Part shown: positions 3,590-12,094 of the stretch, in pieces
Layout: the number at the start of each line of letters is the position of its first letter
How positions within the stretch are numbered: position 1 is the stretch's first letter
Origin: Halobacteriovoraceae bacterium
Lineage (GTDB): Bacteria; Bdellovibrionota; Bacteriovoracia; Bacteriovoracales; Bacteriovoracaceae
Direction of reading: 5' to 3'
NCBI GenBank assembly: GCA_018663815.1
Contig: JABJPQ010000644.1
Span: forward strand, 1-13,570
DNA length: 13,570 nt
The notes under the pieces: generated by a model
Told to the model about the DNA's origin: nothing
Seen by the model: the letters and a program-made list of their open reading frames with translations, nothing else
Databases searched by the model: none
Position numbers and translations under genes: made by a program

Positions 3590-4522
3590 CTATCTAAAAA
3601 CCCAATTAGCATTTGCAGAAGTTGATATTTCATTTTTATTAATAACCTTTTTCGTATCAATTAAAAACTTCGTCTCCATAACAACTCTTACTTTAGCAGG
3701 AACTTTAACGCCTAGGTTATTTAAGTCAATTGAAAGTATTGACTCATTAGCATTCGTTTGAATATTCATATCACTTTGGCTGAGATACTTATCTAAGATA
3801 AGAATATCTGAGCGAAGTCTTCTATTTTGAAAAATTTTAATTTGTTGAGTAAATTTTCTAAGATCAAAACCAGCTCCAAGTTTAAAATTAAGAACACCAT
3901 TTCTCAACGAAACGTTTTGAATACCATTCGCAAAAACAGATTTTGCAGCACTGGCAGCAACGAGCCTAACTTTGTAAGTCATATCAACATACTTAGTTCC
4001 AGTTCCCATTTGTTCTGAGCGTAGTTCATTTTCTAGAACTAGGAAGTAATTTTTAGAACTATTAACAGATAATGAAACTCTATCACCCGTAACACTTACT
4101 GAGAATTGCTCATGCACAGTCTCTGCAACATCAGAGTTATCAAATTGTAACTTCACATTGGTTTCCACAAAGTAGTCATGAACTTGATATGATCTTGTCA
4201 CTGTTCTCATACATCGGTAAGAGACTTGAGTTGGAACATTTCTACATTGTTGACCACCACCAGAACAAACATTTCTACAAATTCCTCTTCCGGTACAAAC
4301 TGTTCGACACATAGGTGGTCTATGAGTACATCTATAACGGTACTCAGTTCTATAACAAATTGAAGGAACTCTTTCGGTTCTATACTCCGTTTTAGTTTTC
4401 TCTGTAGAGAGATTTAATTGAGTTTCATTTACAACTCCATTATAGAGTATTTGTTCTACTGCTGAGCTATCAGCAAATGCATTCATACTTAAAAAGCATA
4501 ATAAAATTAATAATTTTTTCAT
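3590..4522 (-). CDS. Secreted protein with eight-cysteine repeat region; family not recognised
   Basis: The 310-residue product starts with a clear Sec signal peptide (MKKLLILLCFLSMNAFA, probable cut after Ala17). The mature part has eight cysteines, all within residues 56-104 (56, 65, 72, 76, 82, 86, 93, 104). Two copies of C-R-[TN]-V-C (72-76 and 82-86) are followed by a third, half copy, C93-R-N-V. This block is rich in Arg, Tyr and Thr, with repeated 'YRTE' and 'YR(Y)RC'. An even cysteine number suggests up to four disulfides, so an exported and probably outer-membrane or surface place. The rest (about 110-310) is cysteine-free, with alternating polar and hydrophobic residues that suggest beta strands. 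A strong AGGGGGAG ribosome site stands 3-4 bases before the ATG. It is divergent from the transglutaminase-like gene. I do not recognise the family and assign no function. Confidence 0.85.
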   Translation of the reverse strand: MKKLLILLCFLSMNAFADSSAVEQILYNGVVNETQLNLSTEKTKTEYRTERVPSICYRTEYRYRCTHRPPMCRTVCTGRGICRNVCSGGGQQCRNVPTQVSYRCMRTVTRSYQVHDYFVETNVKLQFDNSDVAETVHEQFSVSVTGDRVSLSVNSSKNYFLVLENELRSEQMGTGTKYVDMTYKVRLVAASAAKSVFANGIQNVSLRNGVLNFKLGAGFDLRKFTQQIKIFQNRRLRSDILILDKYLSQSDMNIQTNANESILSIDLNNLGVKVPAKVRVVMETKFLIDTKKVINKNEISTSANANWVFR

Positions 4523-4745
4523 AATCTCCCCCTAGAAGAATTAAGATGACATATCTACTATGCTATTGAGAATGATTACAAATGTATACCAAGTGCTAAA
4601 TGACACCACGAGCACGCAATGTACTTTCAGTACCTTATGCCGCAAATGAGAGAAAAAATTATAACTTTTACACTCACTAATTATAAAAAAGCTTTTTCTG
4701 CATCGTGGTGTATATTGCAGCGGTTAAATATTTAGGAGTAACAAA
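4523..4745. promoter_or_regulatory. Divergent intergenic region with inverted and direct repeats
   Basis: This 223-bp region must hold the promoters of two divergent secreted-protein genes. A 9-bp inverted repeat, ACACCACGA at 4603-4611 and TCGTGGTGT at 4703-4711, has its arms 91 bp apart. The right arm lies inside CTGCA-13 bp-TGCAG (4698-4720). AATTATAA occurs twice as a direct repeat, 22 bp apart (4657-4664 and 4679-4686). AAAAAGCTTTTT (4686-4697) is a 12-bp palindrome. A good AGGAG ribosome site (4734-4738) stands 7 bases before the plus-strand ATG. I could not settle on a -35/-10 pair for either gene. Confidence 0.45.
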
Positions 4746-6608
4746 ATGGCCATTAAAAACATTATGATATTGAGCGGACTTATATTCTTAACTGTCTCAG
4801 AATATGCGTACTCCAAAGCTAGATACCCAAAAATATACCCATTCATACCGTTTAAAGTTAGCGACATTTACAACTCTGTAGAAAATCTTTCTGAAGATAA
4901 GGATTTTGTTTTTAATTTTATCGATATAAATTCCATGAATCTATCCAAGGCAAAAACAAAACTAAAACCTTGGACGAGTTCGTATTGGCCACTCAATAGA
5001 GGCTTAATTGCTGATCCTTATAAAAACACAGTTCGAGGTTATTACTTAAGTACGAAATTTCTCTCATGGAGTAGAAATTTTAATGTCTACAGCCGTAGAA
5101 AAAAAGGCGTCTTTAAAAATGTTGATAAACTAACCGAAGGGCAATTAGCCACCATGGCCCCATCTGAGAAATATGACATACTTCTTGGTGATAAAACTTT
5201 TGACCTAACGAGTAGACTTTGGGATTACACTCAAAAGTGGGGTAATAAAAAAGAATTTGGTTTTTTATCAAAACTATCCCTCGTAGGAGAAGATGCTCTT
5301 TCTATTGCCAAAGAAATGGTTGGATTTGGATGGTATGAAAGTGTCGATGATGCTTTTGCGGATGCTTACCAACTACGAGGAAGCCTTGCCGTTGACGAGG
5401 CTAACCGTCTCGTAAAAGAAGGGCAATTTAGTAGTGTTGAATCCGCAATGCCAATGGCCATTCAAAATGCAATTGCTGACTCAAAAAACTATGTGTTAGA
5501 AAAAAAGAATAATTTAATTGCTCTTTGGGAAGGTATTTGTCATGGATGGTCTACGGCCGCAGGCATAGTTCCAAGACCGAGAAAGACAGTAAAAATAGAG
5601 CTACCAGATGGGCGAAAATTAACTTTTTATCCTGAGGATATTAAAGCTCTTACTTCTCTTTTATGGGCTAATTCTTTAATTCAAGACAATAAATACCTTG
5701 ATTCAAATACTGGAAAAAATATTGGTGGTGGTGTTATCTCTGAAGGACTGCGCTGCAATCTTGAAAACCCAAGGCTTGATAAATGGGGCAGGTTTTATGA
5801 TAATAAACCAGATCCATTCAACAAGGACCACTCTCCTCGTTGCGTCGGTGTTCACCCTGCAATTTGGCACTTAGGACTGGTCAACTTAATTGGAAAACAA
5901 GGGCGTAGCTTTGTTGTTGAACAAAAGATTGGCTCAGAAGTAGATAATCATCCGATGTATGCTTATAAAATGTCTTATTTTAACCCCAGAACAGGAAACT
6001 TTAGTAAGTCTCTAGAAAATAATATTATCCAAATTGATCAATACGACCAATTTAAAAAGTTTAGATCTCCTAGGGCAAAATACATTGTAGGAGTTGAGAC
6101 TGAAATGACTTACCTTGACTGGGTAAGACCTAAAAGAAGAAAGACCAATAATGAACGCAATGATGTCGAAGTGAAAAAGAGTATGATGTATGATCTTGAG
6201 CTTGATGAAAATTACGATATTGTTGGTGGACAATGGCGAGCCTTAATTACAGGCTTAGACATATTCAGTGACTTTGCTGGTGACAATGATTCTGTTGAGG
6301 AGAAAAACCACAATCAGCCTGACTTTTTTTGGGTAATAACCAAAGACTGGAAACCATTTTTTAATGAATTAACAGATATTGAAACATGGGGAGATACAAC
6401 TAAAGCACCACCTCTATCTTGGAAGAAAAGAGCTTTTGGAGCACATAGCTTTATTTATCATCAAAAATATGTGTTCAGTACAGGCCAAAAGTGTAAAATA
6501 ATTCATAAGAGAACAGGCAAGACCCGTGAAGTAAGCTGTGAGTATGAGCTTCCAAAACCACAGCCACTTGTTAATGTTGTTAATAAGCTAATTGAATTAG
6601 CCCAATAA
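4746..6608 (+). CDS. Secreted transglutaminase of the oomycete-elicitor (GP42/M81) type
   Basis: I read this 620-residue protein as a member of the 'TGase_elicitor' family, best known from Phytophthora and reported also from marine Vibrio; such enzymes crosslink glutamine to lysine side chains. The N-terminus is a Sec signal peptide (about residues 1-23/25). A first region carries 'KPWTSSYWPLNRG' (74-86) and 'PSEKYDILLGD' (138-148). The core has W261-E-G-I-C265-H-G-W, with Cys265 the likely nucleophile, then 'LPDGRKLTFYPEDIKAL'. C366-V-G-V-H370-P-A-I-W-H375 offers the catalytic His. Residues 399-411 line up with the Pep-13 segment of the oomycete enzyme. The acidic triad member is not certain. 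The other four cysteines (337, 366, 583, 598) could form two disulfides. The first part may be a pro-region. The gene appears intact, has a good AGGAG site, and stands alone on its strand. The family call is from memory of motifs, with no alignment run; a target is unknown. Confidence 0.75.
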   Translation: MAIKNIMILSGLIFLTVSEYAYSKARYPKIYPFIPFKVSDIYNSVENLSEDKDFVFNFIDINSMNLSKAKTKLKPWTSSYWPLNRGLIADPYKNTVRGYYLSTKFLSWSRNFNVYSRRKKGVFKNVDKLTEGQLATMAPSEKYDILLGDKTFDLTSRLWDYTQKWGNKKEFGFLSKLSLVGEDALSIAKEMVGFGWYESVDDAFADAYQLRGSLAVDEANRLVKEGQFSSVESAMPMAIQNAIADSKNYVLEKKNNLIALWEGICHGWSTAAGIVPRPRKTVKIELPDGRKLTFYPEDIKALTSLLWANSLIQDNKYLDSNTGKNIGGGVISEGLRCNLENPRLDKWGRFYDNKPDPFNKDHSPRCVGVHPAIWHLGLVNLIGKQGRSFVVEQKIGSEVDNHPMYAYKMSYFNPRTGNFSKSLENNIIQIDQYDQFKKFRSPRAKYIVGVETEMTYLDWVRPKRRKTNNERNDVEVKKSMMYDLELDENYDIVGGQWRALITGLDIFSDFAGDNDSVEEKNHNQPDFFWVITKDWKPFFNELTDIETWGDTTKAPPLSWKKRAFGAHSFIYHQKYVFSTGQKCKIIHKRTGKTREVSCEYELPKPQPLVNVVNKLIELAQ

Positions 6609-8414: not shown

Positions 8415-9869
8415 ATGTGTGGTATTGTTGGAATTATTGGTTCTCCCTTTGCAGCTAAGGAAAGCTATTTAGGCCTTTTAATGCTACAGCATCGAGGACA
8501 AGACTCCGCCGGAATTCTTAGTTATGATAGCAATAATAATACCTTTAATTCTGAAAAAAATCTAGGCCATATCAAAGAGGCAATTTCTGAGGAACAAATT
8601 GAATCTTTAACAGGTAGTTGTGCAATTGCGCATACTCGTTACTCTACCATTGGAAAAATAAGAAAAGAAGAAGCACAACCAATGCTGACAAATTATCCCT
8701 ATGGAATAGGTATGGCCCATAACGGAAATATTGTTAACGTAGAAGAAGTTAAAAAAGATTTACTAAAAAAAAATAAGCGTATGGTTCTCTCTAAAAATGA
8801 CCTTGAAGTCATGATGAATATCTTGGCCAAAGAACTAAGTAATGACGATGAATTCTTAAGCTCAGAGATTATCAACCAAGCCGTTGCAAAAATATATGAA
8901 ACAATTGAAGGTGCCTACAGCACAGTGACAATCTTGGCCGGGCATGGTCTGCTTGCTTTTAAAGATCCTAATGGCTTTCGACCTCTTTGCTGGGGCAAAA
9001 GAAAGCTTACAGACGAAGAAAAGGGCATTAACCAAAACGGACAAGAGTATACTTATGCCATTGCCTCTGAGTCAAAATCTTTACAATTTTTAGGTTATGA
9101 GTCTGTAGAAGAGCTTAAAGAAGGTGAATTAATCTATATCACTTTTGAAGGTGTCGTTCATAAATTTCAACATAAAAAAACACCTGCGACTCCATGTATG
9201 TTTGAATGGATATATTTTGCTAATGCTGATTCAAAAATTTGGAATAAAAATGTTTATCAAATGAGACTCAAGTTCGGTGAACTACTTGGGAAAAAATTAA
9301 AAAGTGAAAATATTGATGTCGATATTGTTGTGCCAGTTCCTGACACTTCAAGACCAAGTGCGATTACAATAAGTGAACAATTGGCAAAGCCTTACCGTGA
9401 AGTTCTAATTAAAAATAGATATGCCCAAAGAACATTTATTCTTAATAGCCAAATGGAGCGAGAAAAAGCCGTTCACTTGAAAATGAATGTTGTTGCCGAA
9501 GAAATTAAAGATAAAAACCTTTTAATTGTAGATGACAGTATTGTACGTGGAACAACATCAAAAAAGATTATTCAAATGCTTAGGGCCAATGGTGCTAAAA
9601 GCATCACCATGGTTTCAACTTGTCCCCCATTAATAAAACCATGCTTTTTTGGAATTGATTTTCCCAATGAAGAGGAGCTGGTGGCTGCAAATAAAACAAA
9701 CCGTGAAATTGCCGACTTAATTGGGGCAGATCATGTCTTTTTTCTCGACCAAAATGATTTAAAACTCGCATTCAATGATTTAAAAACCTGTATGGCCTGT
9801 CTTGATGGAAAATATCCCATAGATGTTAGTGCCGCTCAAAAAATGATTGATTCAAGGATAAAAAAATGA
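8415..9869 (+). CDS. purF: Amidophosphoribosyltransferase (PRPP glutamine amidotransferase)
   Basis: PurF makes phosphoribosylamine from PRPP and glutamine, the first and usually feedback-controlled step of purine synthesis. The Ntn glutaminase domain starts at Met1-Cys2-G-I-V-G, with Cys2 as nucleophile once Met is removed; 'LQHRGQDSAGI', 'AHTRYSTIG' and 'AHNGNIVN' follow. The C-terminal phosphoribosyltransferase domain has the PRPP motif LLIVDDSIVRGTTS. Four cysteines sit where B. subtilis PurF binds its [4Fe-4S] cluster: Cys261 (TPCMFE), Cys410 (PCFFGID) and Cys459/Cys462 (CMACLDGKYP). B. subtilis PurF also has an 11-residue propeptide; here the codons upstream of the ATG run to a TAA at 8373 with no usable start, so there is no propeptide. 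The 484-residue length is normal. It is the first gene of the rightward operon, and its stop overlaps the next start by ATGA. Confidence 0.97.
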   Translation: MCGIVGIIGSPFAAKESYLGLLMLQHRGQDSAGILSYDSNNNTFNSEKNLGHIKEAISEEQIESLTGSCAIAHTRYSTIGKIRKEEAQPMLTNYPYGIGMAHNGNIVNVEEVKKDLLKKNKRMVLSKNDLEVMMNILAKELSNDDEFLSSEIINQAVAKIYETIEGAYSTVTILAGHGLLAFKDPNGFRPLCWGKRKLTDEEKGINQNGQEYTYAIASESKSLQFLGYESVEELKEGELIYITFEGVVHKFQHKKTPATPCMFEWIYFANADSKIWNKNVYQMRLKFGELLGKKLKSENIDVDIVVPVPDTSRPSAITISEQLAKPYREVLIKNRYAQRTFILNSQMEREKAVHLKMNVVAEEIKDKNLLIVDDSIVRGTTSKKIIQMLRANGAKSITMVSTCPPLIKPCFFGIDFPNEEELVAANKTNREIADLIGADHVFFLDQNDLKLAFNDLKTCMACLDGKYPIDVSAAQKMIDSRIKK

Positions 9870-12094
9870 AAAAGCTTCTCTATAGCGGCTCCGTTAAAAA
9901 CGTTTATTCCAGTGGAGATGATATAGAGTTTGAATTTTCAGATAAGTATTCTATTTATGATTGGGGTGCAATGCCTGATCTCATCCCACATAAAGGTAAG
10001 AATCTCGCTTTAACTGCTGCTCTTTTATTTGAAAAATTACATTCAGCAACAACATTTAAAGATTTAAAAAAACCTAAACAAATTAAACCTGCTTTTTTTG
10101 ATTCACTCATAAGTTCTGATACATATAACGAACTCTCAACAGATGGAGCGAAAACCCATTATCAAAAATATCTTCCCCCCAACTCAATACTTGTAAACAA
10201 AGTAGATATTCTTCATCCAACACAGGAACAAGACAAATATAATTATCAAGCTTACCAGTCTGCTCCTACTAAAACACTCATTCCACTAGAAGTTGTTTTT
10301 CGACTTGGAGTCCCTGATGGCTCAAGTCTTTTAAAAAGAGATAAAACACTTATTCCCAACTCAATGTTTGAACAGATAAAAGTTGAGTTCTACACAAAAC
10401 TTGAACCCATTGATCGGTTATTAAGTTCTGATGAAGCTGTAAGTATGGCCGCTCTAACAACTAAAGAACTAGAGCAACTCACCAATTTAACCAAGATATA
10501 TGCCCTCGTACTAGAGAACCTATTCACAAAGTCTCAACTTACTTTTTGGGATGGAAAGTTTGAATTTGCATTTGGTGAAAAGATTAATGGTCATAGAGAG
10601 ATAGTGCTTGTCGATAGCATTGGGCCAGATGAAATAAGATTAACCCAAGATAAGAAACCTCTTTCAAAGGAATATTTAAGAAGTTTATATTTTGGAAGTG
10701 ATTGGTACGAAGAACTAGAAAGAGTAAAAAAAGAGTCTCCAAGAGACTTTAAAGAAAAATCTCAATTAGCACCACAAAACCTAACCGAAGACCAAATTAC
10801 TTATGCTGAAAATATTTATCTAACAGTCACTAATACCCTTACCAGTAAGATTGTCATTTTTGGCCAGGGTGGACGAGAGCATGCCATTGCAAATCAACTT
10901 GCATCTGCCTACCAAACAAATAGTATCTTTGTTATCCCTGGTAATCCTGGGATCGATGGTGAAAAGATTCAAAGCATAGATATCCATGAAGATGAATACC
11001 TATCATTTTGTAAAAAACACAAAGTTGATTTAGCAGTTATTGGCCCAGAAGCCCTACTTGAAAAAGGACTTAGTGATCAATTACAAACACATGGAATTGC
11101 TTGTGCATCACCATCTCAAAATGCGGCACGATTAGAAACATCAAAAGCATTTTCAAAAACGTTTATGCAAAAGCATCAAATACCGACTGCAAGTTTTGCG
11201 AATTTTCAAGATTCCAATGCTGCGATTGAGTATATTAAAAATCATGCAGCAAATGATCTTGTCATAAAACTATCAGGACTTGCTGCTGGTAAGGGCGTTA
11301 TTATTTGCCATAACAAGGAAGACTCTATTGCCGCAGTAAAAGCACTCGCTCCAAATGATGAAGAACTTGTCATTGAGCAATTTTTGACTGGCCCTGAAGT
11401 TTCTTACTTTGTTTTATGCCTTAAGGGTGAATACAAAATCCTTGGTACCGCTTGTGATTACAAAAGACTAAAGGATAATAATGAAGGTCCCAACACAGGA
11501 GGCATGGGTTGTTACTCCCCTGCTCATTGGCTCTCTCAAAAAGATCATGAAGTAATCAAACAAGAAGTTATTCTTAAAACACTACAAGGCATGAAAGAAG
11601 AAGATATAAATTACAGAGGTGTCCTCTTCATTGGTCTAATGATGACTCCCCAGGGTCCTTCCGTTTTGGAATATAATGTACGCTTCGGAGACCCAGAAAC
11701 TCAAACAATTCTTCCTCGAGTTGAAGCGGGACTGTTTGAAAGTTTACAGGCCATAGCAAATAATGATCTCAGCATATTTAAAAATAGCTTACTTGAGCTA
11801 AAAAAATCTTCCAGCATTCATATTGTAAAGGCCGCGAAAGGCTACCCAGGGACTTTTGGTGAGAAGATTGAAAAGGGCCAAGTCATAAAAAATAACTTTA
11901 CCAGCTCTCCATCAACTCACTTATTTTTTGCAGGAGTAAAAAAGGAGCAAGATCACTTTGTTACCTGTGGTGGCCGCGTTTTAGGTGTTACAGGACTTGA
12001 TGATAATTTAGCGAATGCAAGATCATTGGCCTATGAAACACTAAACACCATCAGTTTTGCAGGAGAACAGTTTAGAAGGGATATTGGCCAATGA
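9866..12094 (+). CDS. purCD: Fused SAICAR synthetase (PurC) and GAR synthetase (PurD)
   Basis: One 742-residue frame holds two purine enzymes. Residues 1 to about 300 are PurC, which joins aspartate to CAIR: 'SGSVKNVY', SDKYSIYDWGAMPDLIPHKG (25-44), 'VVFRLGVPDGSSLLKR' and LVDSIGPDEIRL (248-259) followed by 'LSKEYLR'. It is the long form of PurC, not the short bacterial one of about 240 residues. After a linker of about 25 residues, PurD runs from 328 to the end and makes GAR from phosphoribosylamine, glycine and ATP: IVIFGQGGREHA (329-340), 'VIPGNPGIDG', 'IKLSGLAAGKGV', 'GPNTGGMGCYSP', the metal site EYNVRFGDPETQ (602-613) and the terminal 'RRDIG'. Both halves look complete and active. The two steps are not consecutive in the pathway. 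Neighbours purF and purN overlap it by 4 bases at each side. Confidence 0.95.
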   Translation: MKKLLYSGSVKNVYSSGDDIEFEFSDKYSIYDWGAMPDLIPHKGKNLALTAALLFEKLHSATTFKDLKKPKQIKPAFFDSLISSDTYNELSTDGAKTHYQKYLPPNSILVNKVDILHPTQEQDKYNYQAYQSAPTKTLIPLEVVFRLGVPDGSSLLKRDKTLIPNSMFEQIKVEFYTKLEPIDRLLSSDEAVSMAALTTKELEQLTNLTKIYALVLENLFTKSQLTFWDGKFEFAFGEKINGHREIVLVDSIGPDEIRLTQDKKPLSKEYLRSLYFGSDWYEELERVKKESPRDFKEKSQLAPQNLTEDQITYAENIYLTVTNTLTSKIVIFGQGGREHAIANQLASAYQTNSIFVIPGNPGIDGEKIQSIDIHEDEYLSFCKKHKVDLAVIGPEALLEKGLSDQLQTHGIACASPSQNAARLETSKAFSKTFMQKHQIPTASFANFQDSNAAIEYIKNHAANDLVIKLSGLAAGKGVIICHNKEDSIAAVKALAPNDEELVIEQFLTGPEVSYFVLCLKGEYKILGTACDYKRLKDNNEGPNTGGMGCYSPAHWLSQKDHEVIKQEVILKTLQGMKEEDINYRGVLFIGLMMTPQGPSVLEYNVRFGDPETQTILPRVEAGLFESLQAIANNDLSIFKNSLLELKKSSSIHIVKAAKGYPGTFGEKIEKGQVIKNNFTSSPSTHLFFAGVKKEQDHFVTCGGRVLGVTGLDDNLANARSLAYETLNTISFAGEQFRRDIGQ

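What the first reader, a model, noticed from the sequence alone, without database searches (positions are those of the whole stretch)
4746..6608. Oomycete-elicitor-type transglutaminase in a bacterium with a possible predatory lifestyle
The protein shows W-E-G-I-C265-H-G-W-S, 'LPDGRKLTFYPEDIKAL' and C366-V-G-V-H370-P-A-I-W-H after a signal peptide. I associate these with the Phytophthora GP42/M81 transglutaminase family, for which a link between oomycetes and marine Vibrio has been described. A secreted protein-crosslinking enzyme in a Bdellovibrionota-like organism could act on the cell wall or proteins of prey, or on its own envelope; that role is pure inference. The spread of the family over such distant lineages would make this copy useful for tracing transfer.
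Basis: partly seen in the sequence, partly recalled or inferred. Interest (0 to 1): 0.7.

Follow-up and report, generated by a model that had tools for sequence, protein, structure and literature searches.

The report
Bacterial cousin of oomycete cell-wall transglutaminase
A bacterium related to bacterial predators carries a secreted enzyme of a family first described in plant-infecting water moulds; it belongs to a separate bacterial branch, tends to sit beside a spike-like secreted protein, and its relatives cast doubt on which histidine the family uses for catalysis.

Summary

Three corrections. (1) The window copy is a remote cousin of GP42 (38 bits; other bacterial copies tested reach 287), so it is a poor tracer of transfer to oomycetes. 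(2) Cys366 is probably structural. (3) The literature's catalytic His, directly after the Cys (H266 here), is kept in 264 of 348 domains, while Cys265, Asp298, His375 and Asn401 are each kept in at least 346. Position 266 changed at least 8 times on a tree.

New: the clade has His370, copies with His or Asn at 266 (this genome has one of each), and a divergently transcribed secreted neighbour (3590-4522, -) with an inferred disulfide-stapled hairpin, adjacent in 7 of 10 genomes with the full-length form.

Best reading: a secreted Cys-dependent acyltransferase, probably cross-linking surface protein together with that partner. Activity and any role in predation are untested.

The parts
4746..6608 (+). 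620-aa probably secreted TGase_elicitor (GP42-like) protein, long form, CH type
4746..4814 (+). signal peptide, about residues 1-23 (cleavage site inferred by eye, no predictor run)
   Evidence: sequence; crude hydropathy rule
5292..5501 (+). helical insertion, about residues 183-252, present in the 620-aa form; the ~560-aa sister form leaves a gap here in the profile match
5526..5549 (+). WEGICHGW: C265 (5538-5540) is the catalytic-Cys position; H266 is the CH-motif His
5637..5639 (+). D298, kept in 348 of 348 domains
5754..5756 (+). C337, inferred disulfide partner of C366
5841..5855 (+). C366 (structural, inferred) and H370, the extra His of the long-form clade (Asn in GP42)
5868..5870 (+). 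H375, the family-wide His (346 of 348 domains; also present in GP42)
5946..5948 (+). N401 at the start of strand 401-412 (347 of 348 domains)
4523..4745 (.). shared divergent intergenic region, 223 bases; promoter-like hits in 4400-4800 are no more than in shuffles
3590..4522 (-). 310-aa probably secreted partner protein, no Pfam family over its cut-off; predicted long beta-hairpin plus C-terminal beta-sandwich
4211..4357 (-). partner residues 56-104: eight Cys that fit a nested ladder 56/104, 65/93, 72/86, 76/82

Best explanation
The protein is a divergent member of the GP42/TGase_elicitor family (shown by sequence and predicted fold), probably secreted (inferred from its N-terminus). It most likely works as a Cys-dependent papain-type acyltransferase: C265 takes up an acyl group from a protein glutamine and passes it to a lysine or other amine (inferred from GP42). 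The family-wide core C265/D298/H375/N401, rather than H266 alone, is likely to carry or support catalysis (inferred from conservation). At the base of its clade a second candidate His, H370, arose; later some sub-branches replaced H266 by Asn, so that one genome can hold a His copy and an Asn copy. It is linked to a divergently transcribed, probably secreted protein that looks like a disulfide-stapled beta-hairpin spike (co-occurrence and adjacency shown); that protein is the best candidate substrate, scaffold or anchor for a cross-linked layer on the bacterium's own surface (inferred).
Against: I saw no activity measurement for a bacterial member in the papers listed. The catalytic geometry was not measured, since coordinates are not returned. 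Six long-form genomes lack a partner hit over 140 bits and nine have such a partner without a long form; G003, G012 and G074 have both on different contigs, and in G074 the partner is in two pieces on two contigs. Of the 21 genomes with the ~560-aa form and a partner over 140 bits, only 1 (G016) has them adjacent. Many genomes are incomplete drafts, and relatedness was not corrected for. CN, CD and even CH copies could be binding proteins without enzyme activity. Foldseek's only partner hit under 0.001 is a pore channel (TM-score 0.19), so another role for the partner is not excluded.
Confidence: 0.5

Rival explanations
1. A predation enzyme: it is secreted into or onto prey and cross-links or deamidates prey envelope proteins, for example to stabilise the invaded cell.
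For: Records holding its close relatives are titled Halobacteriovoraceae or Bacteriovoracaceae among others, and GP42-like copies occur in Myxococcota; both groups include predators (recalled).
Against: No tested gene links it to predation. 27 of the 59 genomes (the window's own among the 59), several of them near complete, have no PF16683 match. The conserved linkage is to a protein with its own signal-peptide-like start, which suits the cell's own surface as well as prey.
Confidence: 0.2
2. A protease or deamidase of papain fold rather than a cross-linker; the transglutaminase label is inherited from GP42.
For: The papain-like superfamily has many functions besides transglutamination (PMC10318531, passages, and its abstract start); only fold and Cys are shown here.
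Against: The only structural hit of any weight is a described transglutaminase.
Confidence: 0.2
3. Catalysis uses H266 exactly as described for GP42, and the Asn/Asp copies are inactive regulators of the His copies.
For: CH is the majority state (264 of 348). 15 of 29 named ~560-aa loci have a second family gene directly downstream, 13 of them with D at this position by motif.
Against: C265 and the rest of the core are about as invariant in Asn/Asp copies as in His copies, unusual for dead copies. In one genus-mate, G002, the two full-length copies found are both CN, though shorter family matches exist there.
Confidence: 0.3

Closest known systems
GP42 transglutaminase of Phytophthora sojae (PDB 3TW5; Pfam PF16683)
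   Same: Fold over 305 of 344 residues, Cys position, CH motif, D298, H375 and N401 equivalents; both thought to be exported
   Different: About 38 bits by sequence; helical insertion and other extra loops; H370 instead of Asn; C337/C366 present; only 4 of 13 residues of the Pep-13 elicitor stretch are shared
GP42-like proteins of Myxococcota and of a relative in the window's bacterial family (e.g. P0222 Pendulispora; L003)
   Same: Same Pfam family; 282-287 bits to GP42 over nearly the whole chain
   Different: Separate group on a long branch (support 93, not starred); Asn at 370; many listed relatives have a PPC domain in the same protein
~560-aa sister form in the same bacterial family (e.g. 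L054)
   Same: H370, CH motif; partner family over 140 bits in 21 of the 27 genomes with this form
   Different: Lacks about 70 residues; in 15 of 29 named loci followed by a second family gene, 13 of them CD type by motif

Membership tests
Pfam TGase_elicitor (PF16683) | Score over the curated cut-off | tested here: met
   77.2 against 25 bits, profile 112-317 of 361
Pfam TGase_elicitor (PF16683) | GP42 fold | tested here: met
Pfam TGase_elicitor (PF16683) | Catalytic Cys in the N-terminal part of a helix | tested here: met
   C265 in helix 260-271; aligned to the Ser of 3TW5, which I recall as the Cys290Ser variant
Pfam TGase_elicitor (PF16683) | CH motif described for GP42 (PMC10318531, passages) | tested here: met
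   C265-H266 in the window; but only 264 of 348 family domains keep the His
Pfam TGase_elicitor (PF16683) | Asp on a neighbouring helix and Asn on a strand near the Cys | tested here: inconclusive
   D298 (helix 296-308) and N401 (strand 401-412) are conserved and lie in such elements, but that they are the residues meant in the paper is my inference and distances are not measurable without coordinates
Pfam TGase_elicitor (PF16683) | Transglutaminase activity | not testable with these tools
   needs purified protein
Pep-13 plant elicitor (a property of oomycete members) | Pep-13 peptide stretch | tested here: not met
   4 of 13 residues identical over residues 399-411, counted by eye (alignment; peptide as printed in PMC9879208)
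Clade linked to oomycete GP42 | Closer to GP42 than other bacterial copies are | tested here: not met
   38 bits against 287 (L003), 282 (P0222), 107, 102 and 59 for five copies of other groups; grouped with long-form bacterial rows, starred 99 (no oomycete row in that tree)

The most novel reading that the evidence does not exclude
The GP42 family's catalytic histidine has been misassigned or is mobile: the true family-wide His is the H375 equivalent (or, in this clade, H370), and the long-form enzyme plus the disulfide-stapled hairpin protein form a dedicated two-gene surface cross-linking system of Bacteriovorax-like bacteria.
Probability: 0.3. Interest if true: 0.75.

Novelty: new variant of a known kind. 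Interest (0 to 1): 0.56.

Why it matters
A 2016 review states that GP42 homologs occur only in oomycetes and some marine Vibrio (PMC4915311, passages). Here genomes of one bacterial family alone give up to 18 matches each (some are two pieces of one gene), and a GP42-like query finds 1647 proteins, so the source of the oomycete gene should be re-examined among many bacterial clades. The natural His/Asn/Asp variants after an almost invariant Cys make the described catalytic mechanism directly testable, and the linked spike-like protein offers a candidate substrate or scaffold for a bacterial member.

Tried and rejected

Sample limits: the 348 domains come from the best 120 of 325 and best 120 of 1647 protein hits plus fetched loci, so they lean to these clades; 395 collected, 47 dropped as identical over their last 300 residues; L003 is in twice (as P0121 and as its whole frame). 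One of the 348 (L052_454, 343 aa) lacks most core residues and is a very long row in the tree. For the tree one row was dropped for poor filling and 123 of 347 were taken: early-fetched loci plus rows under 60% identity to those chosen. It is a quick tree (SH-aLRT only, 25 of 120 inner branches starred, 40 open). Within the long-form clade Asn at 266 arises at least twice (15-row clade and P0084) and Gln once; His at 370 also occurs outside it in L087. The 140-bit and 335-bit limits in the co-occurrence count were set after seeing the tables; with 90 bits the table is 32/5/18/313, with E 1e-6 32/5/52/279. In one search at most 3 and at most 6 candidates per genome were scored, so copies are undercounted. 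The seven named loci with the pair are not extra evidence: they are the same DNA as G001, G077, G018, G149, G021, G016 and G002.

Full report

Host. The window is contig 345 of a draft genome, 80.69% complete. Genus-mates G001, G002 and G003 hold the same DNA as records titled Halobacteriovoraceae bacterium SAT1401, uncultured Oligoflexia bacterium SRR3933286_bin.5 and Halobacteriovoraceae bacterium SAT79. The genome scan kept the best 80 of 132 places, 79 distinct loci; their titles are of that kind (Bacteriovoracaceae, Halobacteriovoraceae, Bacteriovorax, Halobacteriovorax, Oligoflexia, Silvanigrella, Fluviispira, some only 'Bdellovibrionales' or 'Proteobacteria').

Distribution. 32 of 59 genomes, the window's own included, have PF16683 at 0.001, with up to 18 matches in one genome; some matches are two pieces of one frame. 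With the long-form alignment 172 of 368 genomes of the phylum match at 1e-10, at most 3 candidates per genome being scored; matches over 800 bits, the full 620-aa form, occur in 10 genomes. A GP42-like domain from a relative in the same bacterial family (L003) finds 1647 proteins, with named hits in Pendulispora, Nannocystis, Kofleriaceae and Archangium among the 120 listed. The statement that homologs occur only in oomycetes and some Vibrio (PMC4915311, passages) no longer fits.

Position in the family. Bits to GP42 are 287 for the L003 domain, 282 for a Pendulispora protein, 107 (L007), 102 (L009), 59 (~560-aa form L054) and 38 for the window. On a quick tree of 123 representatives the window sits in a 43-row clade (starred 99) made up only of proteins with His at 370; the 46 GP42-like rows form another group on a branch of 1.28 (support 93, not starred). 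No oomycete row was available for that tree. The window copy is therefore a poor tracer of oomycete transfer; L003-type copies are better ones.

Active site. PMC10318531 (passages) says that GP42 lacks the canonical His and has it directly after the Cys ('CH'), near an Asn of strand 2 or an Asp of another helix. Over 348 domains I find C265 347, D298 348, R336 347, C337 347, C366 346, H375 346, N401 347, but position 266 is H in 264, N in 64, D in 19, Q in 1; position 370 is N in 186, H in 160, D in 1 and Y in 1. The core is intact in the main classes: in the 60 NH domains C265, D298 and N401 are 60 of 60 and H375 59; in the 18 DN domains all four are 18 of 18. The tree needs at least 8 changes at 266 and 3 at 370 (both columns were left out of the tree). 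The simplest reading is HN, then HH, then NH: a second His arose at the base of this clade and position 266 was then freed. DN and NN copies lack both, so H375 is the one His common to all main classes; GP42 has it too. Against this: DN and NN copies may simply be inactive, and whether H375 is near C265 I could not measure.

Disulfides. C337 and C366 are near universal in these domains and both absent in the aligned GP42 chain; that joint loss suggests a disulfide (inference). So C366 is probably not part of the catalytic site.

Paralogues. The window genome has a CH copy (window) and a CN copy (contig 64, 629 aa). Tandem copies occur: CD then CH in L044, three CH in L045. Of 29 named ~560-aa loci, 15 are followed directly on the same strand by a second, shorter family gene; 13 of these show D after the Cys by motif and in 2 the motif was not matched; 14 are not followed, of which L068 and L080 have under 160 bases left. 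Several of the 29 share a genome.

The partner. The divergent neighbour (3590-4522, -, 310 aa, signal-peptide-like start) has 51 proteins at 0.001 in the protein database, one of them the window's own, and one weak Pfam match at 0.01 in 1 of 46 members scanned. 14 of the 51 share a longest-contig length with one of the 120 listed TGases, and 0 of 51 with the 119 contig lengths of the GP42-like list. Of 10 genomes with the full-length TGase, 10 have the partner: adjacent and divergent in 7 (G000, G001, G002, G077, G149, G018, G021; 197-279 bases between matches) and on other contigs in G003, G012 and G074 (in pieces in G074); G016 (~560-aa form) also has the adjacent pair (311 bases). Beside these 8 pairs, purE/purK/purF/purC-D recur only in L043 (G001), L044 (G077) and the window, and three other genes in L043, L044 and L057 (G002); L045, L048, L051 and L053 share with the window only the partner among the gene clusters found. 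Long form (over 335 bits, 37 genomes) and partner (over 140 bits, 40 genomes) together 31, long form alone 6, partner alone 9, neither 322; Fisher p 4.7e-31, not corrected for relatedness, limits chosen afterwards; other limits. Among the 27 genomes with the ~560-aa form, 21 have the partner over 140 bits but 1 has it adjacent.

Partner structure. The model has pLDDT 90.5, pTM 0.68: strands 33-68 and 90-128 flank a tip, then more strands. Besides Cys9 in the signal-peptide-like part, the Cys are at 56, 65, 72, 76, 82, 86, 93, 104. The nested pairs sum to 158-160, as in a hairpin ladder, and co-loss fits: 56/104 both kept in 46 of 46; 65/93 45 kept, 1 split; 72/86 39 kept, 6 lost together, 1 split; 76/82 43 kept, 3 lost together; the crossed pairs 72/82 and 76/86 are split in 7 and 6. 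That it is a stapled spike is inference. No clear known fold was found.

How it probably works. Shown: family, fold, conserved core, clade, paralogues, linkage. Inferred: secretion, thioester chemistry at C265, cross-linking of surface protein, partner as substrate or scaffold. A prey-directed role is possible but rests on host taxonomy alone. The Pep-13 stretch is not conserved (4 of 13), so 'elicitor' is only the family's name here.

Noticed in passing
9866-12094 +: A single 742-aa ORF joins a purC-like part (best score under the NCBIfam cut-off) to purD (over cut-off), within a purine cluster named by best NCBIfam hit: purE, purK (under cut-off), purF, purC-purD, purN (just under cut-off).
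   Followed up: no
L003 (G028:C42): In the same bacterial family, a GP42-like domain (287 bits to 3TW5) sits in a frame of at least 1121 aa with repeats that read like PKD domains before it and PPC-like repeats after it (domain names by eye for L003; PF04151 is listed for many of its relatives).
   Followed up: partly
G022, G028 and other relatives: Large expansions of PF16683 (18 and 16 matches, some of them pieces of one frame), with a wide spread of frame lengths.
   Followed up: no
189-1241 -: Secreted or pilin-like protein: weak N-terminal methylation motif (PF07963 15.1 bits against 21.2).
   Followed up: no
L142 (G000:C64) 2031-2414 -: Directly upstream of the CN paralogue, a small ORF of 127 aa with a signal-peptide-like start and several Cys; by eye not the same family as the partner.
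   Followed up: no
L083, L085: Another same-strand pair, WMGLCHGW then WEGICNGW. In L083 the two genes fall in different groups of the tree, so a His copy beside an Asn copy was put together separately from the long-form case.
   Followed up: partly
1611-2855 +: RarA/MgsA-like AAA ATPase (name partly recalled); the 25 NCBIfam rows shown of 79 are all under their cut-offs.
   Followed up: no
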